Positions 12,344 to 38,503 of a stretch of DNA of 64,000 bases are shown piece after piece (the stretch's first letter is position 1; each line of letters starts with the position of its first letter). The translations under genes and the position numbers were made by a program. Location: contig JAUWLF010000011.1 in assembly GCA_030613785.1 (NCBI GenBank), forward strand, positions 1 to 64,000, read 5' to 3'. The DNA comes from Chloroflexota bacterium (GTDB taxonomy: Bacteria; Chloroflexota; Anaerolineae; UBA7937; B3-Chlor). Below the pieces are notes generated by a model. The model saw only the letters and a list, made by a program, of their open reading frames with translations, was not told the origin of the DNA and made no database searches.

Positions 12344-13723
12344 CTAGAAAGCAGGATCTCGCTCGAATTCCTGTCCCTGTGCCTCCAGCCAAGCCGCCCT
12401 CGCATCACCGACCAAGTGCAGAGAGCCGGTGACACACACGAGATCCTCTTTGTCCGCCAACTCCAGTGCTCGCCACAATGCCGAAGCCGGGTCGGACACG
12501 ATAGTGAGAGGGGTTTCTGAGGGTTCCGTGCGCTCCACAATGACCGCGGGCTCACCCGCCCGGGGATGATCTGCTTGCGTGACGATCACTTCCTCGGCGT
12601 GAGAGGTCAGCTCTCTCATTATGGCGGTGATATCCTTGTCCAGCGAGAACCCTACGACGAGAATCAGATCGTCGAAAGCCAGATACTGTCGCAGAGCCCC
12701 CATCAGCCGTTGCACCGAATCGACGTTGTGCGCCCCGTCCATCACCAACAGAGGCTCTCGTGTCAGGATCTCCAGGCGGCCCGGCCACTTCACTCGCCGC
12801 AGTCCCTCTGCCACGTGCTCGAGGGAGATGCCTATCTCCTGGCGGCACAACTGATCTATGGTGGCGATGGCGGTGGTGGCGTTCACTAACTGGTAGCGAC
12901 CCAGAAGGGGGATCCAGAAATCCCGGCTTCTCTGGCCCTCGATCAGTCCACCTGGATCGGGGATCCCACACCTCGCTTCGAAGGACTGGCCTTCCATGTT
13001 TGCCTCACCTGGCTGCCACAGCCAGTCCCTGCCCACGCGGATCAACGGAGATCGCTTCTTGTGACAGACATTGGCGATCACCCGCTCAGCGGCTGCCATT
13101 TGTGGGGAACAGACCACCGGTCTCCCTTCCTTGATGATGCCTGCTTTCTCGCTGGCTATCTCCTCTAGTGTATCGCCCAGGATGTAGGTATGGTCGTAGC
13201 TGATGGAGGTGATCACCGCCACCAGCGGCTCGATCACGTTGGTTGTATCCAGGCGGCCCCCTAGACCAGTTTCGACCACGGCCAGGTCCACTTTCTGCTC
13301 GGCGAAGTGCTGAAAAGCCAGAGCGGTCATGATCTCGAATGTGCTGGGATCCGGCAATTGCTGTATGAAAGGCTTGAGACCATCGAGGGCTGCAATCATC
13401 TGCTCCTCGGTCATGAGGCGGTCGTTGATCCTGATCCGCTCACGGAACGTATGCAGGTGGGGTTGGGTGAACAGCCCGACTCGGTATCCCGCCGCCTGTA
13501 GTACGCTGGCGGTCATCGCGCAGGTGGAGCCCTTGCCTTTGGTGCCGGCGACGTGAATCGCTCTCAGTCGCCTGTGGGGGTCACCGACCATCGAAAGCAG
13601 GGTCTTCATGTTTTCCAGGTCGAAGCGCGTGGGGACATACTTGTCGGGGGCCAGCTTCTCCTGGTCCACGAAGCTGTAGATGTAATCGAGGGCTTCTTGG
13701 TATCTGCGATCTTGGCTAGTCAC
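12344..13723 (-). CDS. folC: Folylpolyglutamate synthase / dihydrofolate synthase; probable GTG start at 13723
   Basis: RRYQEALDYIYSFVDQE...HVAGTKGKGSTCAMTASVLQAAGYRVGLFTQPHLHTFRERI; upstream part of the 498-aa ORF runs antisense through the recombinase. Confidence 0.9.
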   Translation of the reverse strand: MTSQDRRYQEALDYIYSFVDQEKLAPDKYVPTRFDLENMKTLLSMVGDPHRRLRAIHVAGTKGKGSTCAMTASVLQAAGYRVGLFTQPHLHTFRERIRINDRLMTEEQMIAALDGLKPFIQQLPDPSTFEIMTALAFQHFAEQKVDLAVVETGLGGRLDTTNVIEPLVAVITSISYDHTYILGDTLEEIASEKAGIIKEGRPVVCSPQMAAAERVIANVCHKKRSPLIRVGRDWLWQPGEANMEGQSFEARCGIPDPGGLIEGQRSRDFWIPLLGRYQLVNATTAIATIDQLCRQEIGISLEHVAEGLRRVKWPGRLEILTREPLLVMDGAHNVDSVQRLMGALRQYLAFDDLILVVGFSLDKDITAIMRELTSHAEEVIVTQADHPRAGEPAVIVERTEPSETPLTIVSDPASALWRALELADKEDLVCVTGSLHLVGDARAAWLEAQGQEFERDPAF

Positions 13724-15239
13724 TGAGTTGGGGGTTTGTAGAGTCGGCGCTGATGATGACACGGAGGCCGATCTGGCGGAGCATGGCCTTGATCTCTTTG
13801 ACATCATCGCGGCTACTCCACCGGCGGCGGAAGCGGTCAACGGAAGGGCCTACTAACTCGGCAAAGCTCTTCTCCATGGCGGTGGGATCAAGGCGGGTGA
13901 TGGTGTGCTGCTTGCCTTCTAGTTCACTCTGGATCATCTCCAGTTCATCCTCTAGCGTCCCCCGCCGCATGTAATATTCTGATCGGTCGATGAGCAGGCT
14001 CTCATAATCGCGGGTCCATTGCTCCAGGGTGCGTAGGATCCTGGTCTCCGCCGCTTGTAGGCCAGCCAGGTCCTCAGCGGCGCCCTCCGTTTTCTGATCA
14101 GCCAGGGCCAGCAGCTCCTCCTCGAGTAGGCTGGGCTCGGTGGCCCGCGCGATGAGCCAATCCAGAACGTCCTCTTCGACCATCTCCAGCCGGACACCAT
14201 TGCGGGGTGTGGGCCGGCGGCATTCGCTTCGGGGGCGAGGACAGATGAGATACTTGAAGAAATGCTTGGTGCTCCCGCCTCCGGTGATGGTCATGCGGCC
14301 GCCACAGTACCCGCAGTAGACGAAGCCGCTCAAAGGGTACTGCGTATAGGGGTGGCGCTTGCCCTGTTCTCTCCTGGCGGCCATCTCTCGCTGCACTGCA
14401 TCCCAGGTATCCTCGGAGATGATGGCCTCGTGTTTCCCTGGAGCGGAGACCCAATCGCCTGGATCCCGCCAATCGCGCTCTCGATGATCCCAGCGGCGCC
14501 AGGTGACGCGGCCTGAGTAGTAGGGAGAGGCCAGCATGTACTTGAGTGCCGTGGCGTTGCGGGGATAAACCTCGACTGCATGTGCCTTGGCCAGGCGCAG
14601 GATGCCCTCATAGGTATTGCCTTCCAGGAACCATCCGAAGCACTGACGCACGAGTTGGACTTCCGGTTTGTAGGGAATCCCATAGCCTTCATCGCCGAGG
14701 CGGTATCCGAAGGGGATCCGATTGTTCGGGTGATAGCCGTCTTTGACACGCCGGCGGGTGCCCATGCGAAAGCGGGCCTGGAGCTCGGCGACCTCATCCT
14801 GGCTCCTGGCTCTCTCTACACTGCGGAGCCAGATGGACGCACGATCTCTCTGCTCGGCGAACTCCTGGGGATCCTGGACCCGGGTGGGCATGGCCATGGA
14901 ATAGACCTGCACCTTGTACTCCGCCAGATACTCTTCCACCTGGGCGATCAAGGCATCCTTCCGACCGAGGCGATCACGTCCACGGCAGATGAGCAGGTCA
15001 ATACTACCCGATCGGGTGAGGTCCATCAGTTCTGTGTACACAGGCATTTCAGTGGCGGCATCGGCCAGGAAGATGTAACCCCGACTGTGGCCGGGGATGA
15101 TCAGGGGATCGTGGACTTCGTGCCAGCGCTCGTTACGTTCGATGAGCTCGCGGGCGGCGGAGATCTGCGAGGGGATGGAATCCTTCTCCTCAGAGGCTTG
15201 GGGCTTGCTGGAGACAGCAGCCCAGATGATGCAGCGCAT
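13716..15239 (-). CDS. int: Large serine recombinase (prophage integrase)
   Basis: IIWAAVSSKPQASEEKDSIPSQISAARELIERN, LICRGRDRLGRKDALIAQVEEYL, RVKDGYHPNNRIPFGYRL, GFVYCGYCGGRMTITGG zinc motif, C-terminal coiled coil. Confidence 0.95.
   Translation of the reverse strand: MRCIIWAAVSSKPQASEEKDSIPSQISAARELIERNERWHEVHDPLIIPGHSRGYIFLADAATEMPVYTELMDLTRSGSIDLLICRGRDRLGRKDALIAQVEEYLAEYKVQVYSMAMPTRVQDPQEFAEQRDRASIWLRSVERARSQDEVAELQARFRMGTRRRVKDGYHPNNRIPFGYRLGDEGYGIPYKPEVQLVRQCFGWFLEGNTYEGILRLAKAHAVEVYPRNATALKYMLASPYYSGRVTWRRWDHRERDWRDPGDWVSAPGKHEAIISEDTWDAVQREMAARREQGKRHPYTQYPLSGFVYCGYCGGRMTITGGGSTKHFFKYLICPRPRSECRRPTPRNGVRLEMVEEDVLDWLIARATEPSLLEEELLALADQKTEGAAEDLAGLQAAETRILRTLEQWTRDYESLLIDRSEYYMRRGTLEDELEMIQSELEGKQHTITRLDPTAMEKSFAELVGPSVDRFRRRWSSRDDVKEIKAMLRQIGLRVIISADSTNPQLSD
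13730..13738. repeat. Candidate attL core GGGGGTTTG
   Basis: 9-bp match to 52939-52947; lies between folC GTG and the integrase 3' end. Confidence 0.5.
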
Positions 15240-15244
15240 TGGTT

Positions 15245-15260
15245 TACCGAGCGCCCGGTA
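15245..15260. repeat. Dispersed 16-bp near-palindrome copy 1: TACCGAGCGCCCGGTA
   Basis: Located just upstream of the integrase ATG; matches TACCGAGCGCNCGGTA. Confidence 0.85.
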
Positions 15261-15263
15261 GAG

Positions 15264-16034
15264 TCATTGGCAGAGACTCTCGCATGGTTCTCCATCCTGG
15301 TTCTGATCAAGTTTGGAGGGATCGCCCGGGCAGGCGTTCCAATAGGACATGACATCTGCGCATGAGGAGAAATCGCCGCAGTTGTAGAGATCCCCGCTGC
15401 AGTCCCAGGATGGCTCTGGGCTGGCGGGGGATGTTGTTGGCATCTGTGGCTGTGGAGATGTTGCTGTTGGAGCCGCGACGGTAGCCTGGGCCCAGAGGCC
15501 CCTACCGCCCTCTCTGGCCTCCCGCTCGAGATCAACGAACAGATCAGCGAACGCCACATCAGGCGGGTAGGTAGCGGCCTGCGCATAGCCCAGCGCGACC
15601 AATTCAGCGTTGACGAACAGCTCTCCCACATACACATATCGGAGAAGCCTGCCATATCGGTCCACGTCTGATACGTCTTTCTCCAGTTTCACCAGTTGGC
15701 CTTCCACTAACTGTCGATTCGCTTCGGTCGCCTCGGAGCCGCCTGGCTGATCGGATTCAGGACAGTTGATGCCGATGTACCTGACAGAGAACAGCATACC
15801 TCCTATGTCGACCTTGATCGTGTCGCCATCGATGACTCTGACGACCGCCACTTCTGTCATGGTCTCAGGACTAGGCTCTTGCGGAGTTGTAGCCGTCGCT
15901 CCTATTACACTCGGCGCAGTCGTCGCTAGGGGGATGGGCGTTGTGGTTGGAAGGTCTGGGGTGGGCGCTGCGCCGCAGGCGAGGGAGAGCAGGAGCCAGA
16001 GAGTCGCTATTGATGCGCACAGGCCGCGCTTCAT
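15264..16034 (-). CDS. Prophage-encoded lipoprotein: thermonuclease (SNase-like) domain plus excalibur calcium-binding domain
   Basis: Signal LLLSLACGAAPTP; VVRVIDGDTIKVDIGGMLFSVRYIGINCPES...YGRLLRYVYVGELFVNAELVALGYA; DQNQDGEPCESLC. Confidence 0.88.
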   Translation of the reverse strand: MKRGLCASIATLWLLLSLACGAAPTPDLPTTTPIPLATTAPSVIGATATTPQEPSPETMTEVAVVRVIDGDTIKVDIGGMLFSVRYIGINCPESDQPGGSEATEANRQLVEGQLVKLEKDVSDVDRYGRLLRYVYVGELFVNAELVALGYAQAATYPPDVAFADLFVDLEREAREGGRGLWAQATVAAPTATSPQPQMPTTSPASPEPSWDCSGDLYNCGDFSSCADVMSYWNACPGDPSKLDQNQDGEPCESLCQ

Positions 16035-16480
16035 TCTTCGCCCTCCTCAGTGTATTCTCCTCGCTCCTCAGCTACCAACCGAAGCCGGTCCTGCACGATG
16101 CGATCCACGTCGGTGGAGAAGCGCAGCAAGCCCATGATGTTATCTAGTATTTCTCGTCTTTCAACGGGAGATCTGATCTTGCGAAGCATGCCAATGAGTT
16201 CGGTTTCATCTCTGGCCAGATCCTCGGTTTGCTGCTGAGATGGGAGCCAGCCGGCTATCTGACAGAAGTAATCCACCCCGAGGCCGAATGCGAGCGCAAT
16301 GCCAGCGAGCTTCTTCGCAGATACATTCGGATGTTCCCCGTGCTCAAGGCGGTTGAGATAGGACTTTGCGACCCCGGACCTTTGCTCAAGCTGTCCGAAG
16401 GTCCAAGCGTGGGCCTCCCTATGTTTCTGGATGGCCCGGCCGAATCTGACAGCATCGACGCTCTTCTCTTTCTTGGTCAT
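16031..16480 (-). CDS. XRE-family HTH transcriptional repressor (CI-like)
   Basis: RFGRAIQKHREAHAWTFGQLEQRSGVAKSYLNRLEHGEHPNVSAKKLAGIALAFGLGVDYF; divergent from the Cro-like gene. Confidence 0.85.
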   Translation of the reverse strand: MTKKEKSVDAVRFGRAIQKHREAHAWTFGQLEQRSGVAKSYLNRLEHGEHPNVSAKKLAGIALAFGLGVDYFCQIAGWLPSQQQTEDLARDETELIGMLRKIRSPVERREILDNIMGLLRFSTDVDRIVQDRLRLVAEERGEYTEEGEE

Positions 16481-16495: not shown

Positions 16496-16536
16496 GACAA
16501 GTGTTGCCAATTGGGGATTGTTTAAGCTTCTAGGGC

Positions 16537-16564
16537 TTGACAAATGGCAAAAAGCGTGTATAAT
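16537..16564 (+). promoter_or_regulatory. Consensus sigma70-type promoter for the early rightward operon
   Basis: TTGACA (16537-16542), 16-bp spacer, TATAAT (16559-16564). Confidence 0.85.
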
Positions 16565-16584
16565 AGGGGATGAAAGGTGCGAAT

Positions 16585-16845
16585 ATGGAACAGGTAGCAG
16601 ATCTGATCGTCAGGCTGGGAGAGAAGGCGAATAGCACGACACAGAGGGACGTGGCTCGCAAGATAGGCATCAGCGAGACACAGCTAACTAGGCTGCTGAA
16701 AGGCGAAAGGCAGCCGGGGAGCAAGACACTGGCTGGTATCGTTCAGGCCTACCCGGACTTGTTGCCTTACGTATCCCTTTTTTTGGCTGAGAAAGTGCAG
16801 ATTGGCAACGGTCAGGAACCAATTAGGGATGCAAAGCGCCCCTAG
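16585..16845 (+). CDS. Cro-like XRE-family HTH protein (alternative ATG at 16570)
   Basis: TTQRDVARKIGISETQLTRLLKGERQPGSKTLAGIVQAYPDLLPYV; AAAGGTG SD-like sequence upstream of ATG 16585. Confidence 0.75.
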   Translation: MEQVADLIVRLGEKANSTTQRDVARKIGISETQLTRLLKGERQPGSKTLAGIVQAYPDLLPYVSLFLAEKVQIGNGQEPIRDAKRP

Positions 16846-17344: not shown

Positions 17345-19498
17345 ATGATACCGCAGAAGCTGACTCTGGAAAACTTCATGTGCTACGGCCCTCAGCCGAC
17401 GACGCTGGACCTGAACGGGATCCACCTGGCGTGTCTGGCCGGCGAGAATGGCCACGGGAAGTCGGCAATCATCGACGCGATCACGTGGGCGCTGTGGGGG
17501 AAGGCGCGATCACGCCGCGATGATGAACTGATCCACCTGGGACAGGAGCAGATGAGCGTGGGGTTGGACTTCCTACTGGGCGACGAGCAGTACCGGGTGC
17601 TTCGCCAGAGGAGCAGCACTGGCCGGGGCAACAGCGCGCTAGAGCTTCAGATCGTCAACAACGGCCAGGCCAGGCCGCTGACAGGGAATACGCTACGAGA
17701 GACGCAGCAAGCGATCATCGACACCATCTGCATGGACTACGACACGTTCATCAACTCGGCTCTGCTCCTACAAGGCAGGGCCGACGAGTTCACCAACCAG
17801 CCCCCCGGCGAGAGGAAGAGAATCCTGGGCGAGATCCTGGGGCTTTCTCTGTGGGAGACATGGGAGCAGCGGGCCAAGCAGCGGAGCAGGGCTGCAGAGC
17901 TACGCCTGGGCCAGGTGCAGGCAGCAGCCGCTCAGATCGAGGAGGAGCTGGACAAGAAGTTTGATTACCAAGAGGAGTTTAACTTAGCGCAGACCTCCGT
18001 TGGCAGATTGGCGGCTGAACTGCAGGAGCAGACGAAGCAATTGCGTGCAGTTCAGGACAAAGCCGCCGAAGCTGGCCTGAAGAAGCAAGCCCTCACCGAC
18101 GTCAGACTTGAGCTCACGAATCGGCAGAGGGAATTGCAGACGCTCAACGATCGAATCGCGTCGGTGGATCCAGAAGCGGCGGAGAAGATCAGCCGGGAAC
18201 TGCAGGTAGTGATGGAGCAATTGGCCAGCGCTGGCGATGCGGAAGCGGAGAAGCTGGCGAGCGCTGAGGATCATGAAGCGGAGAAGGAACCCTATCAGAA
18301 ACAGCGCGAGGTACTGGCCAGCGAGGAGGCCGGTCTACAAGCCACCAACAAGCAGTTGAAGGCGGACATGGATGCCCTGGCCGAGGAGATCGAATTACTC
18401 AAGCGGGCCGAGGCTCAATGCCCGCTGTGCGATAGCGAACTCACGGAAGAGCATCGACACCAGATCCTGGCCGATAAGCAGGCCGAGGGAAAGGCGAAGG
18501 CAACGAGCTACCGGGACAACAAGACGCGCATCTCAGAGATCGAGCAGAAGGAGTTGCCGCAGGTCAGACAGATGCTCTCGAACATAGATCGAGAACTGGC
18601 GGAGGCAAAGAGGCTGAGGGAACGAGACCTGGCGGAAGCAAAGAGGCTGAGAGAACGAGAGCTCACACTTTCTCAGGAGATCGCCCGACTGAAGAGCGAA
18701 GGGGAGCGATTGGCGGAGTGGGAGGAACAAGCGATCGCCCTGGACCAAACGCTGGAGCAGCTCACCGATCGGAAGGATCTCCTGGAGGAGGAGTTCCGCA
18801 GCCTGGAGGAGATCACAGCAGTCAGGGCAGGACTGGAGATGAAAGTCCGTCAGCTCGAGGAACAAGCATCGCACGCGAAGATGCGGCTGGGCGCGGTGCA
18901 GCAGAAGCTGGATCACTGCACCTACCTGGAGGGTGAGAAGGAGAAGAGGCAGGAAGAGCACGACGAGGCCGGCCGGGAGAAGGCGATCTTCGATGAGCTC
19001 CGCCTGGCGTTCGGCAAGAGGGGGATCCAGGCCATGATTATCGAGACGGTGTTGCCTGAGATCGAGGAACAGGCCAACCAACTGCTGGAGCAGATGACCG
19101 ATGGCCGAATGCATCTGTCATTCGAGAGCCAGAGGGAGACGAAGAAGGGCACCCTGATGGAGACGCTGGACATCGAGGTCTCCGATGAGTTGGGAAGCCG
19201 GAACTACGATCTCTTCTCCGGCGGGGAGGCCTTCCGCATCAACTTCGCCATCAGGATCGCCATCTCGAAGCTGCTGGCGAATCGGGCGGGGGCCCAGCTC
19301 CGGACGCTGATCATCGACGAGGGCTTTGGGAGCCAGGATGGCCATGGCAGGGACCGGCTGGTGGAGGCCATCAACTCCGTGCGTGATGACTTCGCGCTGA
19401 TCCTGGTGGTCACGCACATTGAGGAGTTGAAGGGAGCGTTCGGCAACAGGATAGAAGTAGTGAAGGGCCCCGCGGGGTCCATGATCTCGGTGAATTAG
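17345..19498 (+). CDS. Phage Rad50/SbcC-like ATPase
   Basis: LENFMCYGPQPTTLDLNGIHLACLAGENGHGKSAIIDAITWALWG Walker A; zinc hook QCPLCDSEL; TLIIDEGFGSQDGHGRDRLVEAI. Confidence 0.9.
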   Translation: MIPQKLTLENFMCYGPQPTTLDLNGIHLACLAGENGHGKSAIIDAITWALWGKARSRRDDELIHLGQEQMSVGLDFLLGDEQYRVLRQRSSTGRGNSALELQIVNNGQARPLTGNTLRETQQAIIDTICMDYDTFINSALLLQGRADEFTNQPPGERKRILGEILGLSLWETWEQRAKQRSRAAELRLGQVQAAAAQIEEELDKKFDYQEEFNLAQTSVGRLAAELQEQTKQLRAVQDKAAEAGLKKQALTDVRLELTNRQRELQTLNDRIASVDPEAAEKISRELQVVMEQLASAGDAEAEKLASAEDHEAEKEPYQKQREVLASEEAGLQATNKQLKADMDALAEEIELLKRAEAQCPLCDSELTEEHRHQILADKQAEGKAKATSYRDNKTRISEIEQKELPQVRQMLSNIDRELAEAKRLRERDLAEAKRLRERELTLSQEIARLKSEGERLAEWEEQAIALDQTLEQLTDRKDLLEEEFRSLEEITAVRAGLEMKVRQLEEQASHAKMRLGAVQQKLDHCTYLEGEKEKRQEEHDEAGREKAIFDELRLAFGKRGIQAMIIETVLPEIEEQANQLLEQMTDGRMHLSFESQRETKKGTLMETLDIEVSDELGSRNYDLFSGGEAFRINFAIRIAISKLLANRAGAQLRTLIIDEGFGSQDGHGRDRLVEAINSVRDDFALILVVTHIEELKGAFGNRIEVVKGPAGSMISVN

Positions 19499-19507
19499 GA
19501 GGGAGAG

Positions 19508-20737
19508 GTGAAAGCATTGCACTTTGCTGACGTGCACCTGGGCTCCGATGAGTCGGGGCCCATAGACCCAGAGACAGGACTGAGTGCCCGGTTGATGGAT
19601 TTCCTGAAGTCTCTGGATGCCATCGTGGAGTATATCAAAGCCGAGGAGATCGATCTGGTCCTCTTCTGCGGGGATGCATACAAGACCAGGACGCCCACGC
19701 CCACCTTGGTGAGGGAATTCGCCCAGCGGATCCGCTTGATGGCGGATCTTGCGCCTGTGGTCCTGGTGGTGGGGAATCACGACTTGCCTGGGGCCTGGGG
19801 CAAGGCGCACACGCTGGAGATCTACCGCACCCTGAATGTCGAGAACGTCTACATCGCCGATCGTCCCCAGCTATTCCCGATCGAGACCAAGTCCGGCGTG
19901 GTGCAGGTGGTGGCGATGCCCTGGGCCACGCGGCATAACCTGATGGCGCAGGAGAAGGTGCAGGGGCTGCCTCTCGACCAGATCAATGAGCTGATCGCTG
20001 ATGCGGTGGCGCAGACCATCGAAGGCTTCGCCCGGGGCCTCACTCCAGAGCAGCCGGCGATCCTGGCCGGGCACATGACAGTGGCGGGAGGCGCGTTTGG
20101 CTCGGAGCGGAGCGTGATGCTGGGCTCCGACATCGTGATCCCGCTGGAGGCGGTGGCGTTACCTCAGTTCGACTACGTGGCCCTGGGCCACCTGCATCGA
20201 CACCAGATGCTCCACGATTCTCCCCCAGTCGTCTACTCTGGCAGCATAGAGCGGATTGATTTCGGCGAGGAGAAGGAGGAGAAAGGCTTCATGGTCGTGG
20301 AGATCGGGCGGGAGGAGGAAGGATTGTTCGATGGCGCCTACGTGGAGACAGAGTTCATCCCCCTGAACGTCCGGCACTTCCTGACGATCGAGGTCTCCGT
20401 GGACGGGAGCGATCCCATGACGGCCATCATGGAGGCCATCGATGCTGAGAAGCTCCAGGAGAAGGTAGTGCGGATGGTGGTCAATAGCACGGCCGAAGGA
20501 GAGGCATTGCTGGACAAGGCACAGATCCAGAAAGCATTAGGGGCAGCCTTCCGGTTGGCGAGCTTGACGACGAACGTGGAACGGGCGACCCGGGTGCGAT
20601 TGGGAGACATGGACTACCGCGAAATGGGGCCGCTGCAGCTGCTGGAGGCGTACCTGGAGAGCAAGGGCAAGCCAGCAGAGGAGCAAGAGGCCCTGGTGAA
20701 GGCGGCTGAGGAGTTGATCAAGGAGGGAGAGCAATGA
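19508..20737 (+). CDS. Phage Mre11/SbcD-like nuclease
   Basis: ALHFADVHLGSDE...DLVLFCGDAYKTRTPTP...VLVVGNHDLPGAWG...LAGHMTV...ALGHLHRHQ. Confidence 0.92.
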   Translation: MKALHFADVHLGSDESGPIDPETGLSARLMDFLKSLDAIVEYIKAEEIDLVLFCGDAYKTRTPTPTLVREFAQRIRLMADLAPVVLVVGNHDLPGAWGKAHTLEIYRTLNVENVYIADRPQLFPIETKSGVVQVVAMPWATRHNLMAQEKVQGLPLDQINELIADAVAQTIEGFARGLTPEQPAILAGHMTVAGGAFGSERSVMLGSDIVIPLEAVALPQFDYVALGHLHRHQMLHDSPPVVYSGSIERIDFGEEKEEKGFMVVEIGREEEGLFDGAYVETEFIPLNVRHFLTIEVSVDGSDPMTAIMEAIDAEKLQEKVVRMVVNSTAEGEALLDKAQIQKALGAAFRLASLTTNVERATRVRLGDMDYREMGPLQLLEAYLESKGKPAEEQEALVKAAEELIKEGEQ

Positions 20738-29046: not shown

Positions 29047-29472
29047 ATGGCACGAGGCCAGAAGTACGGAGACGAGGACACAGAGCGGGGACTCCAGGCG
29101 CTGGCAGAGGCAGGGGGCAACGCTGCCAAGGCGTCCCGGGCCTGCGGAATCCCCCCCAGGACACTCAGAGATTGGAAGAACGGCAGCTTCGCCGATGAGT
29201 TCGCCGAGCTTCGCCGCGAGAAAAGGGGCGGCCTGATCGACAAGGTTTGGGCTGGCGCAGAGAAGGCCCTCGACTTGCTCTTGGTTGCGCTGGAACCAGG
29301 AGAGGATGGAAAGAGCAAAGTCAAGGCCCGGGAGCTGGCGGTGATTATGGGCATCCTCACCGATAAGGGCCTGCTGCTGGGCGGAGAACCAACCGAGATC
29401 ATGAAGCAATTGCCACAGATCGTCTTCAGAGGCGTGGACATGAGCGACTACGAGGAGCGTGAGACCGATTGA
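29047..29472 (+). CDS. Terminase small subunit-like
   Basis: GNAAKASRACGIPPRTLRDWKNGSFADEFAELRREK HTH; directly upstream of the large terminase. Confidence 0.65.
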   Translation: MARGQKYGDEDTERGLQALAEAGGNAAKASRACGIPPRTLRDWKNGSFADEFAELRREKRGGLIDKVWAGAEKALDLLLVALEPGEDGKSKVKARELAVIMGILTDKGLLLGGEPTEIMKQLPQIVFRGVDMSDYEERETD

Positions 29473-30760
29473 GATCGTCCGCGACTTCTTCCCGGAGCAA
29501 GGCGAATTCGTCGGCAGCGCGGCGGACGAGGTGCTGTTCAGCGGCGCATGGGGAGCCGGCAAGAGCCTATCGCTGTGCGCCAAAGCTCTCATGCTCTCGC
29601 TACGCTACCCAGGCAACCGGGGAGGCCTGTTTCGCAAGGAGTTCAAGGCACTGAAGGCGACCACGCTCATCACGCTCCTGGAGGGCGATGGGCGAACCGG
29701 GCCGGTCTTGCCGCCGGAGTACATCGCCAAACACCACAAGACCGAAGCGACAATCAGGCTCAAGAACGGCTCGACGATTCTATACGGGGGGCTAGACAAT
29801 CCAGGATGGATCCTCTCGCTGAACATAGGATGGTTCGCGGTAGACCAGATCGAGCAGCTCACGGAGCAAGACTACAATATGCTCCTGGGTCGGCTGAGAC
29901 ATCCCGTCCCGTCCGTGAGGCAAGGCTTCGGGGCCTGCAACCCAGAGGCGCCGACACATTGGCTCTACCAACGGTTCTTTCACAAGAAGCCGCCCGGCAC
30001 ACACGCCATCACGGCCAATACGTTCTCAAACCCCTATCTCCCCGACGACTATGTAGCCCGGCTGAAGAAGCTGAAAGGCGTCTATCGCCTCCGGTACGTG
30101 GAGGGCAAATGGATCGCCTTCGAGGGCATGATCTACGACAACTTCGAGCCCACGACACACATTATCGATCCCTTCGAGATCCCGCACGACTGGCCACGGT
30201 ACAGAGTGATCGACTTCGGCTACCGGAATCCGTTCGTCTGCCAGTGGTGGGCGGTCTCTCCGGACGACATCTACTACATGTACCGCGAGATCTACATGAC
30301 TCACCGACTGGTGAGCGAGCACGCGAAGGAAATCCAGCACCTCGAAGAAGTGGGACTCGACGACGAAGGCAATGAGATATGGCGAGAACGACCAGAGAGG
30401 AGTTGGGCCGATCACGATGCAGAGGATCGAGCCACGCTAGAGGCCAATGGAATCTACACTCGGCCAGCGATCAAGGACGTCTCACCGGGGATCCAGGCGG
30501 TGTATGAGCGGCTCAATATCGGAGAGGACGGCAAGGCGGGCATCTACTTCTTCCGGAACGCACTGGTGGAGATCGACCAGCATCTCGAGGCAGAGGAAAA
30601 GCCGGTCTCTAGTCTCGACGAGATACAGAGCTATGCCTGGAAGAAGCCGGGGCCAGGCCGCCCGACGAAAGAGGAGCCAGTGAAGGAGAACGATCACGGC
30701 ATGGATGCGATGAGATATTTCGTATACAGCATGGCAGCAGCACCAAGGGCATATTACTAG
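29459..30760 (+). CDS. Terminase large subunit
   Basis: VLFSGAWGAGKSLSLCAKALM Walker A; YRVIDFGYRNPFVCQWWAV nuclease motif; SWADHDAEDRATLEANGI. Confidence 0.9.
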   Translation: MRPIEIVRDFFPEQGEFVGSAADEVLFSGAWGAGKSLSLCAKALMLSLRYPGNRGGLFRKEFKALKATTLITLLEGDGRTGPVLPPEYIAKHHKTEATIRLKNGSTILYGGLDNPGWILSLNIGWFAVDQIEQLTEQDYNMLLGRLRHPVPSVRQGFGACNPEAPTHWLYQRFFHKKPPGTHAITANTFSNPYLPDDYVARLKKLKGVYRLRYVEGKWIAFEGMIYDNFEPTTHIIDPFEIPHDWPRYRVIDFGYRNPFVCQWWAVSPDDIYYMYREIYMTHRLVSEHAKEIQHLEEVGLDDEGNEIWRERPERSWADHDAEDRATLEANGIYTRPAIKDVSPGIQAVYERLNIGEDGKAGIYFFRNALVEIDQHLEAEEKPVSSLDEIQSYAWKKPGPGRPTKEEPVKENDHGMDAMRYFVYSMAAAPRAYY

Positions 30761-32854
30761 ATGGGATTTCGGGACCGATTGTACAGGGCAAGCTGGGCCT
30801 TGATGGGGCGGAAGGGCATCGGCGGGCTGGACATGCTGTTGGGTGCCGACGCCAAGAGCTGGTATCCCAAGACCGATTTCGAGAGGCTGAGCAAGGAAGG
30901 CTACGAGTACAACGCGGTGATCTATGCCTGCATCAACGAGCTCATGGACTCGTTGTCGGAGGCACCGATCCTGGTGGAGGTCCAGAATCGCAAAGGCGAG
31001 TGGGAAGTGAAGTCCGATCATGCATTGGCTCAGTTGCTGGCCAGGCCCAATCCCGATATGTCGGTGGATGACTTCACAACTGGGACGACGATGTACCAGG
31101 CGATCGCGGGCAATATGTTCTGGGAGAAGGAGCGCAGCGGGGCCGGCCGCGTCGTGGGACTCTGGCCCATGCGCCCCGATCGCGTGGGGATCGTCTCGGT
31201 GACGAGCAAACCTGGAGAACGGGTCAAAGAGCGGATCCTGAACTATACCTGGCGCCACCATGCGGATGTCGTGAGATTGCCCGCCAGCGACGTAATCCAC
31301 TTCAAGGAACCGAACCCCAGGGACGAACTGTTTGGGCTGCCTCCGCTGGCCGCGGGGGCCCGAGAGGGCGACACAGACAACAGAGCCACAAACTACGTTG
31401 GCAGCTTCTTCGACAACGCCGCGGTGCCCAAGGGCCTGTTGAAGGTGCAGGGGCGCATCGATCCCGCGGAGGAAAAGCGCCTCAAAGAGCGGTTGCAGAG
31501 GCTCTTCAGCGGCCGAGAGGGCTGGCACGATCCGTTGATCCTGGGTGAAGGCTCGGAATGGACCGAATTGGCAGAGAGCTTCAAGGACATGGACTTCCCG
31601 AACTTGAGAAAGATCACGGAAACCCGGATCTGCATGCTCTTTGGTGTCCCGCCCATCATCATCGGGAGCTTCGCGGGCCTGGAGCAGGCGACCTACGCCA
31701 ACTACGGAGAGGCGAGGAAATCGTTCACCCAGGAGACATCGATTCCCATGCACCGCCGGCGGGACACCGTTCTGAACCGGATGCTGGCGCCAGAGTTCGG
31801 AAAAGGCGTGCGGGTGCGCTCGGACACATCGAAGCTGGCGGCGATGATGGAAGACATGAACCAGATCTGGGAAAGAGCTCAGGGGGCGCTCGTCGCCAGC
31901 GGGATCATGGTGAATGACTTCCGCGAGCAAGTAGGGCTACCCAGGGTGGAGGGCGGAGACATCTTCCTCCGATCGCCGATGATGATGGAAGTCCCGGGCA
32001 AGATAGAAGGCCAGAAGGCAATCACCATCCACGAGAGCAAGATGGCGAATCAGGTGCCGGAGGACAATATCGAGGTCTACTACAAGGCTTTCGACATGGT
32101 GGCCAGGGCCTGGGAGAGCCCCTTCAGGAAGAAGGCGCGCGACTTGTTCCAGCAGGAGTTGGAAGAGATACTGAAGATCCTGAGAAAAGAGGGCAAAGCC
32201 TCGATCGAGGGGGAGCCATTCCACAAGTTCCTGGATCTCGTCGTAGCCTACCTGATACAGCGCAAGGAGGCCTGGCAGCAGGCCTTCCTGCCCCTGTTCA
32301 CAGACTTGACGGCGTCCCAGGGCGAGAACGTGCTGGGGGCCCTGGGGATAGCGTGGGACATCGAAAACCCGTATGTGCAGGAGTTCCTGCATGGCTACAC
32401 GATCAAGTTCGCCGACAAGATCGAGGACACTACCGAGCGCGCGGTAAGAGGTCTGGTAGCCACCGCTCAGGAAGAGGGCTGGTCGGTGCCCACTCTGCGC
32501 GGCGAGATCGATGGTCTATTTGATGAATTCGACAAGCAACGCGCCGACGCCATCGCCAGGACAGAGACGATCAGGAGCTCCAATGCTGGCACGGTAGAGG
32601 CCTGGGAGCAGGCGGGGATCAGTAGAAATCAATGGTATGCCAGCCTGGACGGCCGGCAGTGCCAGTTCTGCGAGGCCATGCACCACAAGTACGGCCCAGG
32701 GACGCAGGGCTTCGCCATCAAAAGTACCGTGGCTTCCCTGGGAGAGTCGATCACCGGAACGGAGGGCGGGACGATGACAGTGAGCTATGAGAACGTGCAA
32801 TACCCGCCCCTGCACGTCAAGTGTAGATGCACGGTGCTGGCGATAGTGGAATAG
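30761..32854 (+). CDS. Portal protein fused to a MuF-like head morphogenesis domain
   Basis: N-terminal HK97-type portal (PLILGEGSEWTELAESFKDMDFPNLRKITETRICMLFGVPPIIIGSF); C-terminal ARTETIRSSNAGTVEAWEQAGISRNQWYASLDGRQCQFCEAMH...PPLHVKCRC. Confidence 0.88.
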   Translation: MGFRDRLYRASWALMGRKGIGGLDMLLGADAKSWYPKTDFERLSKEGYEYNAVIYACINELMDSLSEAPILVEVQNRKGEWEVKSDHALAQLLARPNPDMSVDDFTTGTTMYQAIAGNMFWEKERSGAGRVVGLWPMRPDRVGIVSVTSKPGERVKERILNYTWRHHADVVRLPASDVIHFKEPNPRDELFGLPPLAAGAREGDTDNRATNYVGSFFDNAAVPKGLLKVQGRIDPAEEKRLKERLQRLFSGREGWHDPLILGEGSEWTELAESFKDMDFPNLRKITETRICMLFGVPPIIIGSFAGLEQATYANYGEARKSFTQETSIPMHRRRDTVLNRMLAPEFGKGVRVRSDTSKLAAMMEDMNQIWERAQGALVASGIMVNDFREQVGLPRVEGGDIFLRSPMMMEVPGKIEGQKAITIHESKMANQVPEDNIEVYYKAFDMVARAWESPFRKKARDLFQQELEEILKILRKEGKASIEGEPFHKFLDLVVAYLIQRKEAWQQAFLPLFTDLTASQGENVLGALGIAWDIENPYVQEFLHGYTIKFADKIEDTTERAVRGLVATAQEEGWSVPTLRGEIDGLFDEFDKQRADAIARTETIRSSNAGTVEAWEQAGISRNQWYASLDGRQCQFCEAMHHKYGPGTQGFAIKSTVASLGESITGTEGGTMTVSYENVQYPPLHVKCRCTVLAIVE
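32431..32446. repeat. Dispersed 16-bp near-palindrome copy 3: TACCGAGCGCGCGGTA
   Basis: Inside the portal-MuF gene; identical to copy 2. Confidence 0.85.
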
Positions 32855-33032
32855 GGAGGAAGTATGAAGACGAAACGAATCTTGGGCTATCCAGTGGTGC
32901 TCTTCGGGTATCCAGTGGTGCTCGTTGAAAACATGAAGACACCGAAGATGAAAATCGAGGACATCAAGGTGATCGAGCTCTGGCGATATGTAGAGTGCCG
33001 CTTGATACGCAAGAGCGAACAGGGAGGGAATC

Positions 33033-33803
33033 ATGGAACTGGAACGCAAGTCATTTCCGTTTGAACTGAAAGAAGAGGGGCTGGATTCGGAGGAGCGGAC
33101 TTTCGAGGGCTTCGCCGCCGTGATGGGTAACGTCGATGACCAGCAAGATGTCATCGTCAATGGCGCCTTCAAGAAGACGATCAAGGAGATGCGGAAGCCC
33201 GATGGGTCATCCAGAATCAAGGTCTTCTGGATCCACAACTTCGAGGTCCCTATCGGTCGCGTGCTCGACATCAAAGAAGTGCCGAAGAGCAGGCTCCCGA
33301 AGGAAGTGCTCGAAAGAGCACCGGATGCCACTGGAGGGCTATGGGTAAAGGGTCACATCAGCCCGACATCTGATGGCGACGCCGCCCTGATCTTGATGAA
33401 GGATGCAGTCCTGGATGAGCTGAGCATCGGCTACAGATCTGTCAAGGAGGAATGGGACGACGATGAGGAGCTCCGTTATCTGAAGGAAATCAAGCTCAAG
33501 GATGTTTCGCCAGTACCTCTTGCGGCCAACGTGGCCGCGATCGTCACGGAAGTGAAGCGATACGGGCCAGGGCTCCGCGAATTGGCGGAAAAGGTCGGAG
33601 CGGAAGTTGGTCTGGATACATCCGAGGCATTCGACTCATTCGTGGAAGCATTCGCAGCTCAACTCACTGCCAAGGGAGGCAAGACCGAGGAGACCGAGGT
33701 AGGCGACCCGGAGCCTGACACAGAGACACAAAAGCAGGTCGTAGACGCATTGATCCAAGGAGCCAAGATCCAGAGGGCAGCGATCGAGGCCTTGGCAGAA
33801 TAG
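33033..33803 (+). CDS. HK97-family prohead protease
   Basis: RTFEGFAAVMGNVDDQQDVIVNGAFKKTIKEM...KVFWIHNFEVPIGRVLDIKE...DAVLDELSIGYRSVKEE. Confidence 0.9.
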   Translation: MELERKSFPFELKEEGLDSEERTFEGFAAVMGNVDDQQDVIVNGAFKKTIKEMRKPDGSSRIKVFWIHNFEVPIGRVLDIKEVPKSRLPKEVLERAPDATGGLWVKGHISPTSDGDAALILMKDAVLDELSIGYRSVKEEWDDDEELRYLKEIKLKDVSPVPLAANVAAIVTEVKRYGPGLRELAEKVGAEVGLDTSEAFDSFVEAFAAQLTAKGGKTEETEVGDPEPDTETQKQVVDALIQGAKIQRAAIEALAE

Positions 33804-33923
33804 GTCAAGAATCCAAGAGCAAGCCGAGCCGGACTAGGGTCCACTCACTTGCGGGCGATCCGGGGACCAGGGTTCTCGGAAAGGCCGGGAATGGCGACCA
33901 ATAACCATTCACGGAGGTGAATT

Positions 33924-35243
33924 GTGGGCGACATGGACATCGGAGCACTGAGAGAGGAAGCAAGGGCCCTGAATCTCAAAGGTCTGGACATCTATGACCA
34001 GATCATGAAGGGCGACGTCGGCATCGAGAAGCGTGAGGAAGCCGACAAGTATATCGCAGAGGCAGCGGAGAAGCTGGATACCTCGAAGGGAGCCTGGGAG
34101 GCGCTGCAACAGAACGCGCACCTGGTCGAGGGCATGGGATCCCTCACCGCAGGCGATCCCGCCACCGGCGACCCGCAGCAGCAGGTGAAATCGGGCTGGG
34201 ATAGCTCCTTACAATGGCTTCTGGCGGTGACTGCCAGCGGCGTGCCGGAGCATGCTCACATACTGGTGAATCAGGGCTTGCTCCCTGAAGACTTCGAGCA
34301 AAAGCTGTATGAGGAAAAGGCGCTGGCAGAGGGGACAGGTGCAGCGGGCGGGTTCCTCGTTCCTGTCGAGTACCGCCCAGAACTGTTCGCAAAGCCAGGG
34401 GAAGCCGCAATCGTGCGGCCACGCGCCAGAGTGCTCCCCATGGGTACGAGGCAGTTGCAGCTACCGTCGTTGGACCAGACGATCACGCCAGCCGATGCGA
34501 AGTCGGCGTATTTCGCAGGCATCCTGTTCGAGTGGATCGAAGAGGCAGAGGAGAAGCCAGAACAAGAGCTTTTGTTCAAGCTCATCGACCTGAATACACA
34601 CGAACTGGCGGGGTGGCTACCTGTGTCGAATCGCTTGATCCGAATGAGCGCGATTTCGCTGGACGTGCTGCTTCGCGACTTGTTTGGCCGGGCGATGGGC
34701 GACGCGGAGGACTGGTGGTTCCTGAACGGCAACGGCGTAGGACAGCCGCAAGGCATCATCAGCGCACCTTGCACTATCCAGCCTAACCGGACAGGTGCGA
34801 ACGCCATCGTGTGGGCGGACATCATGGCGATGTACCATGCCTTCGAGCACAACCCCCGGGGTGTCTGGGTAGCCCATGTCTGCACCACACAGCAGCTCAT
34901 CGGGCTGAAGGATGGCAACAACAACTATATGTGGATGGCCAACATGCGGGACGGAATGCCACAGAACTTGCTGGGCTATCCGATCATCTTCACGGAGAAG
35001 GTGCCGAACTTGGGAACCAAGGGAGACATCAACCTGTGTGACTTCGGGTACTACCTGATCGGCGATGAGGAGGGACCGATGGTTGAGTCCAGCATCCACG
35101 AGCGATTCAGGAAGAACCAGACGACATATCGCATTTCCGAGATGGTGGATGGCCAACCGTGGCTGAGCGAGCCGATCGAGCTACGGCCTGATGGAACGGT
35201 GAGCATCTCACCGTTCGTCAGCTTGGACGTGCCTGCACAATAA
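33924..35243 (+). CDS. HK97-fold major capsid protein
   Basis: AAGGFLVPVEYRPELFAKPGEAAIVRPRARVLPMGTRQLQLPSLD...AGWLPVSNRLIRMSAISLDVLLRDLFGRAMGDAEDWWFLNGNGVGQPQGII. Confidence 0.92.
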   Translation: MGDMDIGALREEARALNLKGLDIYDQIMKGDVGIEKREEADKYIAEAAEKLDTSKGAWEALQQNAHLVEGMGSLTAGDPATGDPQQQVKSGWDSSLQWLLAVTASGVPEHAHILVNQGLLPEDFEQKLYEEKALAEGTGAAGGFLVPVEYRPELFAKPGEAAIVRPRARVLPMGTRQLQLPSLDQTITPADAKSAYFAGILFEWIEEAEEKPEQELLFKLIDLNTHELAGWLPVSNRLIRMSAISLDVLLRDLFGRAMGDAEDWWFLNGNGVGQPQGIISAPCTIQPNRTGANAIVWADIMAMYHAFEHNPRGVWVAHVCTTQQLIGLKDGNNNYMWMANMRDGMPQNLLGYPIIFTEKVPNLGTKGDINLCDFGYYLIGDEEGPMVESSIHERFRKNQTTYRISEMVDGQPWLSEPIELRPDGTVSISPFVSLDVPAQ

Positions 35244-36053: not shown

Positions 36054-36121
36054 GTGGGGGCGGTGGTAGAACACAAAATCCCTGCCATTGATAGCTGGAA
36101 GGGCTTCCAGCCCGCCCCCAC
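36054..36121 (+). ncRNA. Structured leader: 10-bp outer stem enclosing a 7-bp hairpin, upstream of the glyco/methyl cassette
   Basis: GTGGGGGCGG (36054-36063)/CCGCCCCCAC (36112-36121); CTGGAAG (36095-36101)/CTTCCAG (36104-36110). Confidence 0.55.
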
Positions 36122-36132
36122 AAGAGGGCATC

Positions 36133-36654
36133 ATGCACGAAGAAGCGTTGCGGATGATGACCGACATGCTCAGTGGCCTGGACCTGCATAACGCATCGGT
36201 GCTGGACGTGGGCAGCCATGCGGGGATGGGCAGTTTCAAGCCCCTGGTCGAATCCCTGGGGTGGGCATACGTGGGCCTCGATCTGGCGCCAGGGCCGGGC
36301 GTGGATGTGATCACCATGCACCCATACGAGTATCCATTCGACGATGGGGCATTCGACGTGGTGATCTCTGGCTCCACGATGGAGCACGTGCAAGCATTGT
36401 GGTTGTGGGTGCCGGAATTGTACCGCCTGTTGAGGAACGGCGGCTGGCTGGCGATCTGCACGGTGATGAGCTGGGAGTTGCACCGCAATCCACTGGATTG
36501 CTGGCGCATCATGCCCGATGGGATGGCGTTCCTGCTGCATCGGGCCGGGTTCCAGTATTTCCAGATCAAGCACGTCGGCGACAAGGACATCAGGGCCTTG
36601 GCATATAAGGGGGAAGATCTGCGGTGTCCCGAATTGTTGTCTACACCGTCATAA
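36133..36654 (+). CDS. SAM-dependent methyltransferase
   Basis: SVLDVGSHAGMGSFKPLVESLGWAYVGLDLAPGPGVDV...FDVVISGSTMEHVQALWLWVPELYRLLRNGGWLAI. Confidence 0.8.
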   Translation: MHEEALRMMTDMLSGLDLHNASVLDVGSHAGMGSFKPLVESLGWAYVGLDLAPGPGVDVITMHPYEYPFDDGAFDVVISGSTMEHVQALWLWVPELYRLLRNGGWLAICTVMSWELHRNPLDCWRIMPDGMAFLLHRAGFQYFQIKHVGDKDIRALAYKGEDLRCPELLSTPS

Positions 36655-37295
36655 CGGGGCAGTACGAGCCGCTGCTGTCGCCACACGTAATCGACCCCAA
36701 TGCCGAGTACGTGTGCCTGTGCGATATGCCGATACCCGAAGTGGAGCCCTGGCAAATCAGGGTGGTGGAGCGTGAGTGCGAGGACGCAGCCAGGGAATCC
36801 AGAAGGCTCAAGATTCTATCGCACCGGCTCTTTCCAGATGCAGAGTACACCTTGTATCACGACGCCAACATGCGGCTGAAGACTACCGATCCGCTGAGTT
36901 GGCTTGACAAGCACGACATGGCCCTGTGCGTCCATCCTCATACCGATTGCCTGTACGAAGGTGCTGAGGCCTGCATCGAAGACGGCAAGGGCGACCCGAG
37001 CGAGATCAGGGCGCAAATAGCCCGCTACAAGGTGGCAGGCTATCCCGAACATGCGGGGCTGGTGGCGGGGACAGTCATCCTGCGAAGGCACACCGAAGCC
37101 GTGGTGCTATTCAACGAATGGTGGTGGCGGGAGGTCGCGATGGGAAGCGTGAGGGACCAGGTGAGCTTCAACTACGTCTGCTGGAGGCTGGGCATGGAAT
37201 ATAGCCTGATACCGGGGGGATTGTACGGGAACTCCGCCTTTGAATACACATTTCCGTCGTTCCACCTGCCCCCGAGAGAGGAGATCTGGCTGTGA
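36624..37295 (+). CDS. Glycosyltransferase (DUF616/TOD1-MUCI70-like), GTG start
   Basis: RIVVYTVITGQYEPLLSPHVIDPNAEYVCLCDMP...SRRLKILSHRLFPDAEYTLYHDANMRLKT. Confidence 0.7.
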   Translation: MSRIVVYTVITGQYEPLLSPHVIDPNAEYVCLCDMPIPEVEPWQIRVVERECEDAARESRRLKILSHRLFPDAEYTLYHDANMRLKTTDPLSWLDKHDMALCVHPHTDCLYEGAEACIEDGKGDPSEIRAQIARYKVAGYPEHAGLVAGTVILRRHTEAVVLFNEWWWREVAMGSVRDQVSFNYVCWRLGMEYSLIPGGLYGNSAFEYTFPSFHLPPREEIWL

Positions 37296-38503
37296 TCGAC
37301 GGCGTGGTAAGGCTGGGCCCGCAAGACTATGAGGCATACCTGGATCATCAGATATGCGGGCTAGAGGCCCAAATGGACCTCTTGCCGAGCTACGAGACAC
37401 GGTATCAGCTCGAGCTGGCCGAAAGGCTCCAGAGATTCGGAGCTGTACGACCAGGCACGAGCGTCTTATGTCTTGGCGCTAGATTGGGGGCGGAGGTCAG
37501 GGCCTTCATCGACCGCGGCTGCTTCGCCGTTGGCTTGGATCTGAACCCAGGCGAAGGAAACAGACACGTCCTATATGGCGACTTTCATCAACTCCATTTC
37601 GCCAGTGACAGCGTGGACGTGATATTCACCAATGCGCTGGATCACGTTTTCAACCTCAGCATCTTCATCAACCAGATATGTCGGGTGCTGAAACCCAATG
37701 GCCTGCTGATCATGGATCTCGTGAGGGGCAGCGGCGAGGGTGTGAAACCGAGCGTCTATGAGAGCCTGTTCTGGGAGAGGACCGACGACATCCTGGCACC
37801 CTTCCTGGCGGGGGAATTCACCCTGATCGCCAGGGCCGATTTCGCTTGGCCCTGGGCCGGCGAGCACGTGGTACTGAGCAGAAGGGAACGCATGAGCCAG
37901 AGGCAAATGGTCGGCAACGTGATCGAAGAGGCCGCCAGCTTGCCCGGGCGGTGCATGTACCCGGAATTGATATTCCTGCACCAACTGGCGATGGTAGCCC
38001 CTCCAGGCTTGCCCATGGTCGAGCTGGGCACCTTCCAGGGCAGGACCACCGCGCCACTTTGTGCGGCGGCGAAGCAGATCGGCTCTGAGGTCGTGACGAT
38101 CGACAACTACATGCAGGACCCAGCCTTCACCGACTGGCCGAAGGGATACGACGAAGACCCAGAATGCGGCAAGACGCCCGAGGAGTATGCGGAACTGACA
38201 CGGCAGAACCTGGCCAGCCTGGGCTACGAGCCCCGCATCATCATCGGCGATTCGGCTACCGTGCCCGAAGGGATCGAGGAGGTGGGCCTGCTGTTCATCG
38301 ACAGCGAGCACACAGCGGAGAAATTCAAGGAAGAGTGCGATGCCTGGCTTCCCCTGATGAAAGAGGGCAGCATCCTCGCTTGCCACGACTACGAGCAACC
38401 GACGTGGCCCGCGATGACACCAGCGATAGACGAACGAATCACGCCGGACGAGTGGGAGCGCTTGGGCCTGGTGATTTGGCTCATAGGATTCAAGAAGAAA
38501 TGA
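37292..38503 (+). CDS. Two-domain SAM-dependent methyltransferase protein, GTG start
   Basis: N domain TSVLCLGARLGAEVRAFIDRGCFAVGLDLNPG; C domain LPMVELGTFQGRTTAPLCAAAKQIGSEVVTIDNYM...GLLFIDSEHTAEKFKEECDAWLPLMKEGSILACHDY. Confidence 0.75.
   Translation: MIDGVVRLGPQDYEAYLDHQICGLEAQMDLLPSYETRYQLELAERLQRFGAVRPGTSVLCLGARLGAEVRAFIDRGCFAVGLDLNPGEGNRHVLYGDFHQLHFASDSVDVIFTNALDHVFNLSIFINQICRVLKPNGLLIMDLVRGSGEGVKPSVYESLFWERTDDILAPFLAGEFTLIARADFAWPWAGEHVVLSRRERMSQRQMVGNVIEEAASLPGRCMYPELIFLHQLAMVAPPGLPMVELGTFQGRTTAPLCAAAKQIGSEVVTIDNYMQDPAFTDWPKGYDEDPECGKTPEEYAELTRQNLASLGYEPRIIIGDSATVPEGIEEVGLLFIDSEHTAEKFKEECDAWLPLMKEGSILACHDYEQPTWPAMTPAIDERITPDEWERLGLVIWLIGFKKK

What the first reader, a model, noticed from the sequence alone, without database searches (positions are those of the whole stretch)
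15264..16480. Surface nuclease lipoprotein translationally coupled to the prophage repressor: candidate superinfection-exclusion or lysogenic-conversion system
The repressor stop and the nuclease start overlap (ATGA at 16031-16034). The product has a lipobox-like signal, an SNase-type domain and an excalibur motif. Being co-expressed with the repressor, it would be made in the lysogenic state and displayed outside the membrane. A membrane-anchored nuclease made in lysogens could cut incoming phage DNA, analogous in logic to prophage exclusion lipoproteins such as Ltp of TP-J34.
Basis: partly seen in the sequence, partly recalled or inferred. Interest (0 to 1): 0.75.

Follow-up and report, generated by a model that had tools for sequence, protein, structure and literature searches.

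The report
Phage repressor operon carries exported nuclease
A dormant virus in a Chloroflexota-type bacterium makes a DNA-cutting enzyme displayed outside the cell membrane from the same operon as the repressor that keeps the virus asleep; the same pairing recurs in temperate phages of several unrelated bacterial groups, which suggests that prophages repeatedly use exported nucleases to police DNA entering their host.

Summary
Window 15264-16034(-) encodes a 256-aa lipoprotein-like exported SNase with a C-terminal Excalibur-type motif. Its ATG overlaps the stop codon of a Cro/CI-type repressor (ATGA, 16031-16034), with a strong Shine-Dalgarno, inside an apparently intact ~39-kb prophage. It lies between the repressor and a serine integrase, the slot held by Ltp in phage TP-J34. 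Catalytic Asp/Arg/Glu/Arg are kept and the predicted fold matches staphylococcal nuclease (TM 0.90).
In 82 deduplicated virus-contig SNase clusters, 33 have a same-strand HTH repressor within 800 bp upstream, against 1 of 101 host-genome clusters (p ~1e-12), and SNases exceed other genes of the same contigs. Linked cases span Chloroflexota, Bacilli and Proteobacteria. In five families the SNase is 71-99% conserved while most repressors are only 20-44% identical; the closest relative keeps the ATGA overlap behind a 32%-identical repressor.
Function is inferred, not shown. Location fits expression in lysogens. Best reading: an envelope 'barrier' nuclease that degrades DNA entering lysogens. The only functional precedent, SPbeta YokF, lowers transformation; superinfection exclusion is possible but untested. 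New variant of a known kind.

The parts
15264..16034 (-). Exported SNase lipoprotein: signal/lipobox (aa 1-20), low-complexity linker, SNase domain (aa 84-183), Excalibur-type motif (aa 217-252)
   Evidence: ORF; Pfam; lipobox; AF2 model pLDDT 93-98 over SNase and about 91-94 over Excalibur; Foldseek to staphylococcal nuclease TM 0.90, rmsd 1.5 A
16031..16480 (-). Cro/CI-type repressor (HTH_31/HTH_3), no peptidase domain detected
16031..16034 (-). ATGA overlap of repressor stop and SNase start, preceded by AGGAGG Shine-Dalgarno 8 nt before the ATG
   Evidence: sequence; same overlap in relative L201
13716..15239 (-). Large serine integrase, 24 nt after the SNase gene, same strand
16570..16845 (+). 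Divergent Cro-like HTH protein
16537..16564 (+). Perfect sigma-70-type early promoter TTGACA-16-TATAAT before cro and early genes
16504..16550 (.). Operator-like inverted repeat TTGCCAATTG / CAAATGGCAA in the repressor-cro intergenic region
17345..20737 (+). Phage SbcC-like and SbcD-like early genes (also in relative L201)
29459..35243 (+). Terminase, portal (with Mu-F domain) and capsid genes: show that the element is a prophage
   Evidence: Pfam

Best explanation
The gene is a lysogenic-conversion gene of an apparently intact prophage: a surface-anchored SNase translated from the repressor mRNA and therefore probably made whenever the prophage is dormant (inferred from operon structure). The Sec/lipobox signal puts the nuclease on the outer face of the cytoplasmic membrane in monoderm hosts; homologues in diderm hosts have ordinary Sec signals and would be periplasmic. 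There it acts as a barrier nuclease that cuts DNA crossing the envelope. The best-supported substrate is free double-stranded DNA on its way to uptake, so that the lysogen is not transformed and the prophage is not replaced; naked phage DNA exposed at the membrane may also be cut. Shown: genes, overlap, fold, catalytic residues, recurrence, retention behind exchanged repressors. Inferred: expression, location, activity and benefit.
For: ATGA overlap and strong SD; no terminator-like site on this strand between the genes. Same-strand repressor upstream of exported SNases: 13/82 virus clusters within 150 bp vs 0/101 host-genome clusters (p 1.7e-5), 33/82 vs 1/101 within 800 bp (p 8.6e-13); against other genes of the same contigs 32/80 vs 76/907 within 800 bp (p 7.5e-13). 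The SNase domain stays 71-99% identical while most repressors are 20-44% identical. D71, R85, E93, R129 invariant in 20 homologues, matching D21/R35/E43/R87 of staphylococcal nuclease (numbering from memory). Signals are lipoprotein-, TM- or Sec-type in nearly all linked copies. Host has Lgt, LspA, ComEC and DprA families and no other SNase. YokF, same architecture, lowers transformation about tenfold (PMC4774983).
Against: No expression or activity data. Ca ligand D40 of staphylococcal nuclease is Asn here (also in A403, AP45, L201), effect unknown. ComEC and DprA families also occur in E. coli, so they do not prove competence. Many phage-borne SNases are not linked to a detected repressor (37 of 82 clusters, including SPbeta yokF). 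A weak promoter-like site lies inside the repressor gene, so independent transcription is not excluded.
Confidence: 0.5

Rival explanations
1. Superinfection exclusion proper: the anchored nuclease cuts phage DNA during injection, protecting the lysogen from heteroimmune phages that the repressor cannot stop.
For: Same slot and strand as the exclusion lipoprotein Ltp (int-ltp-peptidase-repressor in TP-J34; PMC3952083). SNase kept while repressors are exchanged, as expected of a function that adds to immunity. A membrane-bound nuclease cutting DNA during injection exists (SNIPE, PMC13190303).
Against: SNIPE's nuclease is on the cytoplasmic side and is recruited by the tape measure protein; here the nuclease is outside and no recruiting domain is seen. 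Injected DNA is normally shielded by the tail channel (general knowledge). No SNase exclusion protein found in the papers searched.
Confidence: 0.27
2. Host-benefit conversion: the nuclease degrades extracellular DNA for nutrients, biofilm turnover or competition, and the phage carries it to raise lysogen fitness.
For: Homologues are ordinary genes in 152 of 299 genomes of the host class; B. subtilis yokF/yncB deletion reduces growth on external DNA (PMC3929857). This host has no other SNase.
Against: Diderm copies carry plain Sec signals and would be periplasmic, out of reach of bulk external DNA unless exported further; does not explain tight repressor linkage over free moron sites.
Confidence: 0.2
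3. Neutral or positional hitchhiking: any gene that lands downstream of a repressor is tolerated because it does not disturb the lytic programme; the pairing says nothing about function.
For: The slot is optional: empty in integrase relatives L322 and L325, and held by an unrelated membrane-anchored protein in L324.
Against: SNases exceed other genes of the same contigs, repressor linkage is scattered over many SNase branches, and the SNase is kept when the repressor is swapped.
Confidence: 0.1

Closest known systems
YokF (SPbeta prophage SNase lipoprotein, B. subtilis)
   Same: Lipoprotein + SNase + Excalibur; prophage-borne; near the serine-integrase end of the prophage; 38% identical over the nuclease domain
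   Different: yokF is not next to a repressor; no coupling. Its effects (transformation, heat-shock DNA degradation, growth on DNA) are reported for YokF only
Ltp of Streptococcus thermophilus phage TP-J34
   Same: Lipoprotein in the slot between integrase and repressor, same strand, expressed in lysogeny (PMC3952083)
   Different: Ltp is not a nuclease; it blocks DNA injection, with the tape measure protein as target. Our protein is accounted for by SNase + Excalibur
Anoxybacillus phage A403 and Aeribacillus phage AP45 thermonucleases
   Same: Same-strand repressor-...-SNase-Excalibur-...-serine integrase with divergent cro
   Different: TM-anchored rather than lipobox; one or two genes between repressor and SNase; annotated only as nuclease
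Moraxella phage Mcat8 hypothetical protein (KR093632 32347-33066)
   Same: Secreted SNase-Excalibur directly behind a longer CI-like repressor
   Different: Sec signal, probably periplasmic; annotated as hypothetical
SNIPE
   Same: Membrane-bound nuclease acting on entering DNA
   Different: GIY-YIG + DUF4041, nuclease in the cytoplasm; a different nuclease family
Dns nucleases of C. jejuni integrated elements CJIE1/2/4
   Same: Mobile-element DNases that block natural transformation (PMC4774983)
   Different: Different nuclease family (from general knowledge); not repressor-coupled as far as known

Membership tests
SNase (PF00565) | Profile match above curated cut-off | tested here: met
   61.3 bits vs 21
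SNase (PF00565) | Catalytic D21, R35, E43, R87 of staphylococcal nuclease | tested here: met
   D71, R85, E93, R129 invariant in 20 sequences; correspondence by profile alignment to a PDB chain
SNase (PF00565) | Ca ligand D40 (varies inside the family; not required by the Pfam profile) | tested here: not met
   Asn in window, A403, AP45, L201; Asp in others
SNase (PF00565) | SNase fold | tested here: met
   Foldseek TM 0.90 to 6u0x, rmsd 1.5 A
SNase (PF00565) | DNase activity | not testable with these tools
   needs purified protein
YokF-like prophage SNase-Excalibur lipoprotein | Lipobox + SNase + Excalibur in a prophage | tested here: met
   Excalibur sub-threshold in this copy, above threshold in L201
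YokF-like prophage SNase-Excalibur lipoprotein | Lowers transformation, degrades DNA | not testable with these tools
   reported for YokF only
Ltp-type superinfection-exclusion lipoprotein | Lipoprotein gene between integrase and repressor, same strand | tested here: met
   window 13716-16480(-) vs TP-J34 table
Ltp-type superinfection-exclusion lipoprotein | Ltp ectodomain instead of an enzyme | tested here: not met
   ectodomain is SNase + Excalibur
Ltp-type superinfection-exclusion lipoprotein | Blocks phage DNA injection | not testable with these tools
   needs plating and injection assays
SNIPE | GIY-YIG nuclease + DUF4041, cytoplasmic nuclease | tested here: not met
   no such Pfam match; nuclease follows an export signal
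Cro/CI-type phage repressor | HTH of XRE type, divergent cro, operator-like repeats | tested here: met
   repression itself not tested

The most novel reading that the evidence does not exclude
A widespread, previously undescribed class of prophage defence: exported nucleases made from the immunity-repressor operon that destroy entering phage DNA on the outer side of the cytoplasmic membrane, giving every lysogen a sequence-independent second layer of exclusion that survives exchange of the repressor.
Probability: 0.22. Interest if true: 0.85.

Novelty: new variant of a known kind. Interest (0 to 1): 0.6.

Why it matters
Prophages and other mobile elements often carry secreted nucleases, and why they do is open (transformation blocking, defence, host benefit). 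A recurring repressor-SNase operon ties such a nuclease to the lysogenic state in several bacterial groups and gives ready test systems (cultured phages A403, AP45; Pseudomonas prophages L238, L254). If the nuclease blocks DNA entry, immunity and a sequence-independent entry barrier are co-inherited.

Tried and rejected
Close relatives of the window SNase or repressor in IMG/VR by single-sequence scans: none; alignment-based scans then found L201 and many others. The first mixed alignment was too divergent to search with. Direct-repeat att core of 10 nt or more between the integrase side and the distal side: none, so the exact prophage ends are unknown. Prophages with a similar repressor in 299 class genomes: only weak HTH hits. 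Mu-like phages TJ1 and Mae-JY22 have the SNase just before lysis-type genes in the same run, so linkage there is ambiguous (TJ1 is nevertheless counted in the 33). Considered and rejected: intracellular nuclease (export signal), SNIPE membership, and a unique oddity of this genome. No paper found that describes the pairing; the library holds open-licence papers only. A strict lipobox regex missed the window and was replaced by the PROSITE-type pattern.

Full report
1. Observation. ORFs 15264-16034(-) and 16031-16480(-) exist as described and overlap as ATGA. The nuclease start is preceded by AGGAGG eight bases upstream. SNase is a strong Pfam match; Excalibur is below its cut-off in this copy but above it in the nearest relative. 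The N-terminus fits a lipobox in the permissive PROSITE form, and the genome holds Lgt and LspA.

2. Context. The genes belong to an apparently intact prophage: serine integrase 13716-15239(-), SNase, repressor, then divergent Cro-like gene, SbcC/SbcD-like genes, Gp3-like protein, ParB-like protein, terminase, portal, capsid, amidase. A perfect TTGACA-16-TATAAT site lies on the plus strand before cro, with an operator-like inverted repeat. TACAAT lies 6 nt before the repressor ATG, which would give a nearly leaderless repressor message as in lambda PRM (inference; the lambda fact from memory). The SNase gene ends 24 nt before the integrase start. No terminator-like site on the minus strand separates repressor and SNase; one weak promoter-like site lies inside the repressor gene.

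3. The protein. AlphaFold2 (20 window or related-locus sequences) gives pLDDT 93-98 over the SNase fold and about 91-94 over the Excalibur region, with a low-confidence linker. Foldseek places it on staphylococcal nuclease, TM 0.90, rmsd 1.5 A. D71, R85, E93, R129 are invariant. Asn replaces the Ca ligand D40, as in several relatives.

4. Recurrence. Among sequenced phages, A403 and AP45 have repressor, one or two further genes, SNase-Excalibur, two genes, serine integrase, all on one strand, with divergent cro. Mcat8 has a CI-like repressor followed directly by a secreted SNase-Excalibur. Scans of IMG/VR and GTDB genomes with an HTH profile made here gave, after clustering at 85% identity, a same-strand HTH gene within 150 bp upstream in 13 of 82 virus-linked clusters vs 0 of 101 host-genome clusters, and within 800 bp in 33 vs 1 (the one exception, L244, may itself be a prophage). 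A further adjacent pair, L050 with a Pfam Phage_CI_repr repressor, was missed by the profile. Pfam gave HTH-domain matches in 9 of 10 sampled repressors (L209 had none, and L213's two matches are just below the curated cut-offs). Within the same virus contigs, SNases exceed other genes (12/80 vs 41/907 within 150 bp; 32/80 vs 76/907 within 800 bp); these contigs were cut out around the SNase, which makes this control conservative. Caveats: mechanical gene models, flanks of about 1.5 kb for Chloroflexota genomes, non-random sampling by sequence patterns.

5. Nearest relative. L201 (IMGVR_UViG_3300031999_000131) is a related phage: integrase 75%, SbcD 60%, SbcC 55-57%, SNase 64% overall and 71% in the domain, but repressor 32% and Cro-like 39% over a short stretch; it keeps the ATGA overlap, SD and gene order. 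L212 has a one-base TAATG overlap. Across five families the SNase domain is 71-99% identical except for one pair at 78-79% being typical of the lower end; in 17 of 19 pairs the repressors are 20-44% identical, the exceptions being L050/L053 (63%) and L034/L048 (100%). So the nuclease tends to stay when the repressor is exchanged. Integrase relatives L322 and L325 lack any gene in the slot, and L324 has an unrelated membrane-anchored protein there: the slot is optional.

6. Origin. Homologous SNases occur in 152 of 299 genomes of the host's class; this host has only the prophage copy. On a domain tree repressor-linked SNases are scattered (26 parsimony changes; shuffles from 26, mean 31.6). The short domain resolves poorly, so this supports several independent recruitments but not a number. 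SNase homologues also match 2274 plasmid records, 1643 of them predicted conjugative, so mobile elements in general carry this family.

7. Function. Location predicts expression in lysogens. Linked copies carry lipobox, TM or Sec-type signals; Chloroflexota-type ones tend to lipoboxes and proteobacterial ones to plain Sec signals, which places the enzyme on the outer side of the cytoplasmic membrane in either cell type. This favours a role against DNA crossing the envelope over bulk external DNA degradation. The PLoS Biology 2016 paper (PMC4774983) states that YokF reduces transformation about tenfold and lists other mobile-element DNases that do so, with the rationale that transformation can delete the element. 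Ltp (PMC3952083) shows that the same slot can hold an exclusion lipoprotein, and SNIPE (PMC13190303) that a membrane nuclease can cut DNA during injection, though from the cytoplasmic side. Which of these applies here is undecided; the umbrella 'barrier nuclease' model gets 0.5, exclusion proper 0.27.

8. Verdict. Real, recurrent and not described in the papers searched, but made of known parts: new variant of a known kind, interest 0.6.

Noticed in passing
L212:4929-5639 and L209:1438-2286: Repressor-linked SNase lipoproteins with an Ada-type metal-binding domain at the C-terminus where others have Excalibur.
   Followed up: no
L324:3169-3684(-): In a distantly related prophage the integrase-repressor slot holds a membrane-anchored protein with a Pro/Thr linker and no Pfam match.
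   Followed up: partly
window 17345-20737: Prophage carries its own SbcC- and SbcD-like genes shortly after cro, conserved in L201.
   Followed up: no
window 36088-39471: ORFs among the virion genes that look like methyltransferases and a glycosyltransferase, by eye from the translations.
   Followed up: no
PLSDB plasmids: SNase homologues in 2274 plasmid records, 1643 predicted conjugative, mostly Klebsiella and other enterobacteria.
   Followed up: no
L050:5518-5949 and L053:5535-5948: Two repressors share the C-terminal part (NPREQAILELYRALDEDAQR) but differ in the HTH half, as if the DNA-binding half had been exchanged.
   Followed up: partly
window 30761-32854: Portal protein fused to a Mu protein F-like domain.
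   Followed up: no
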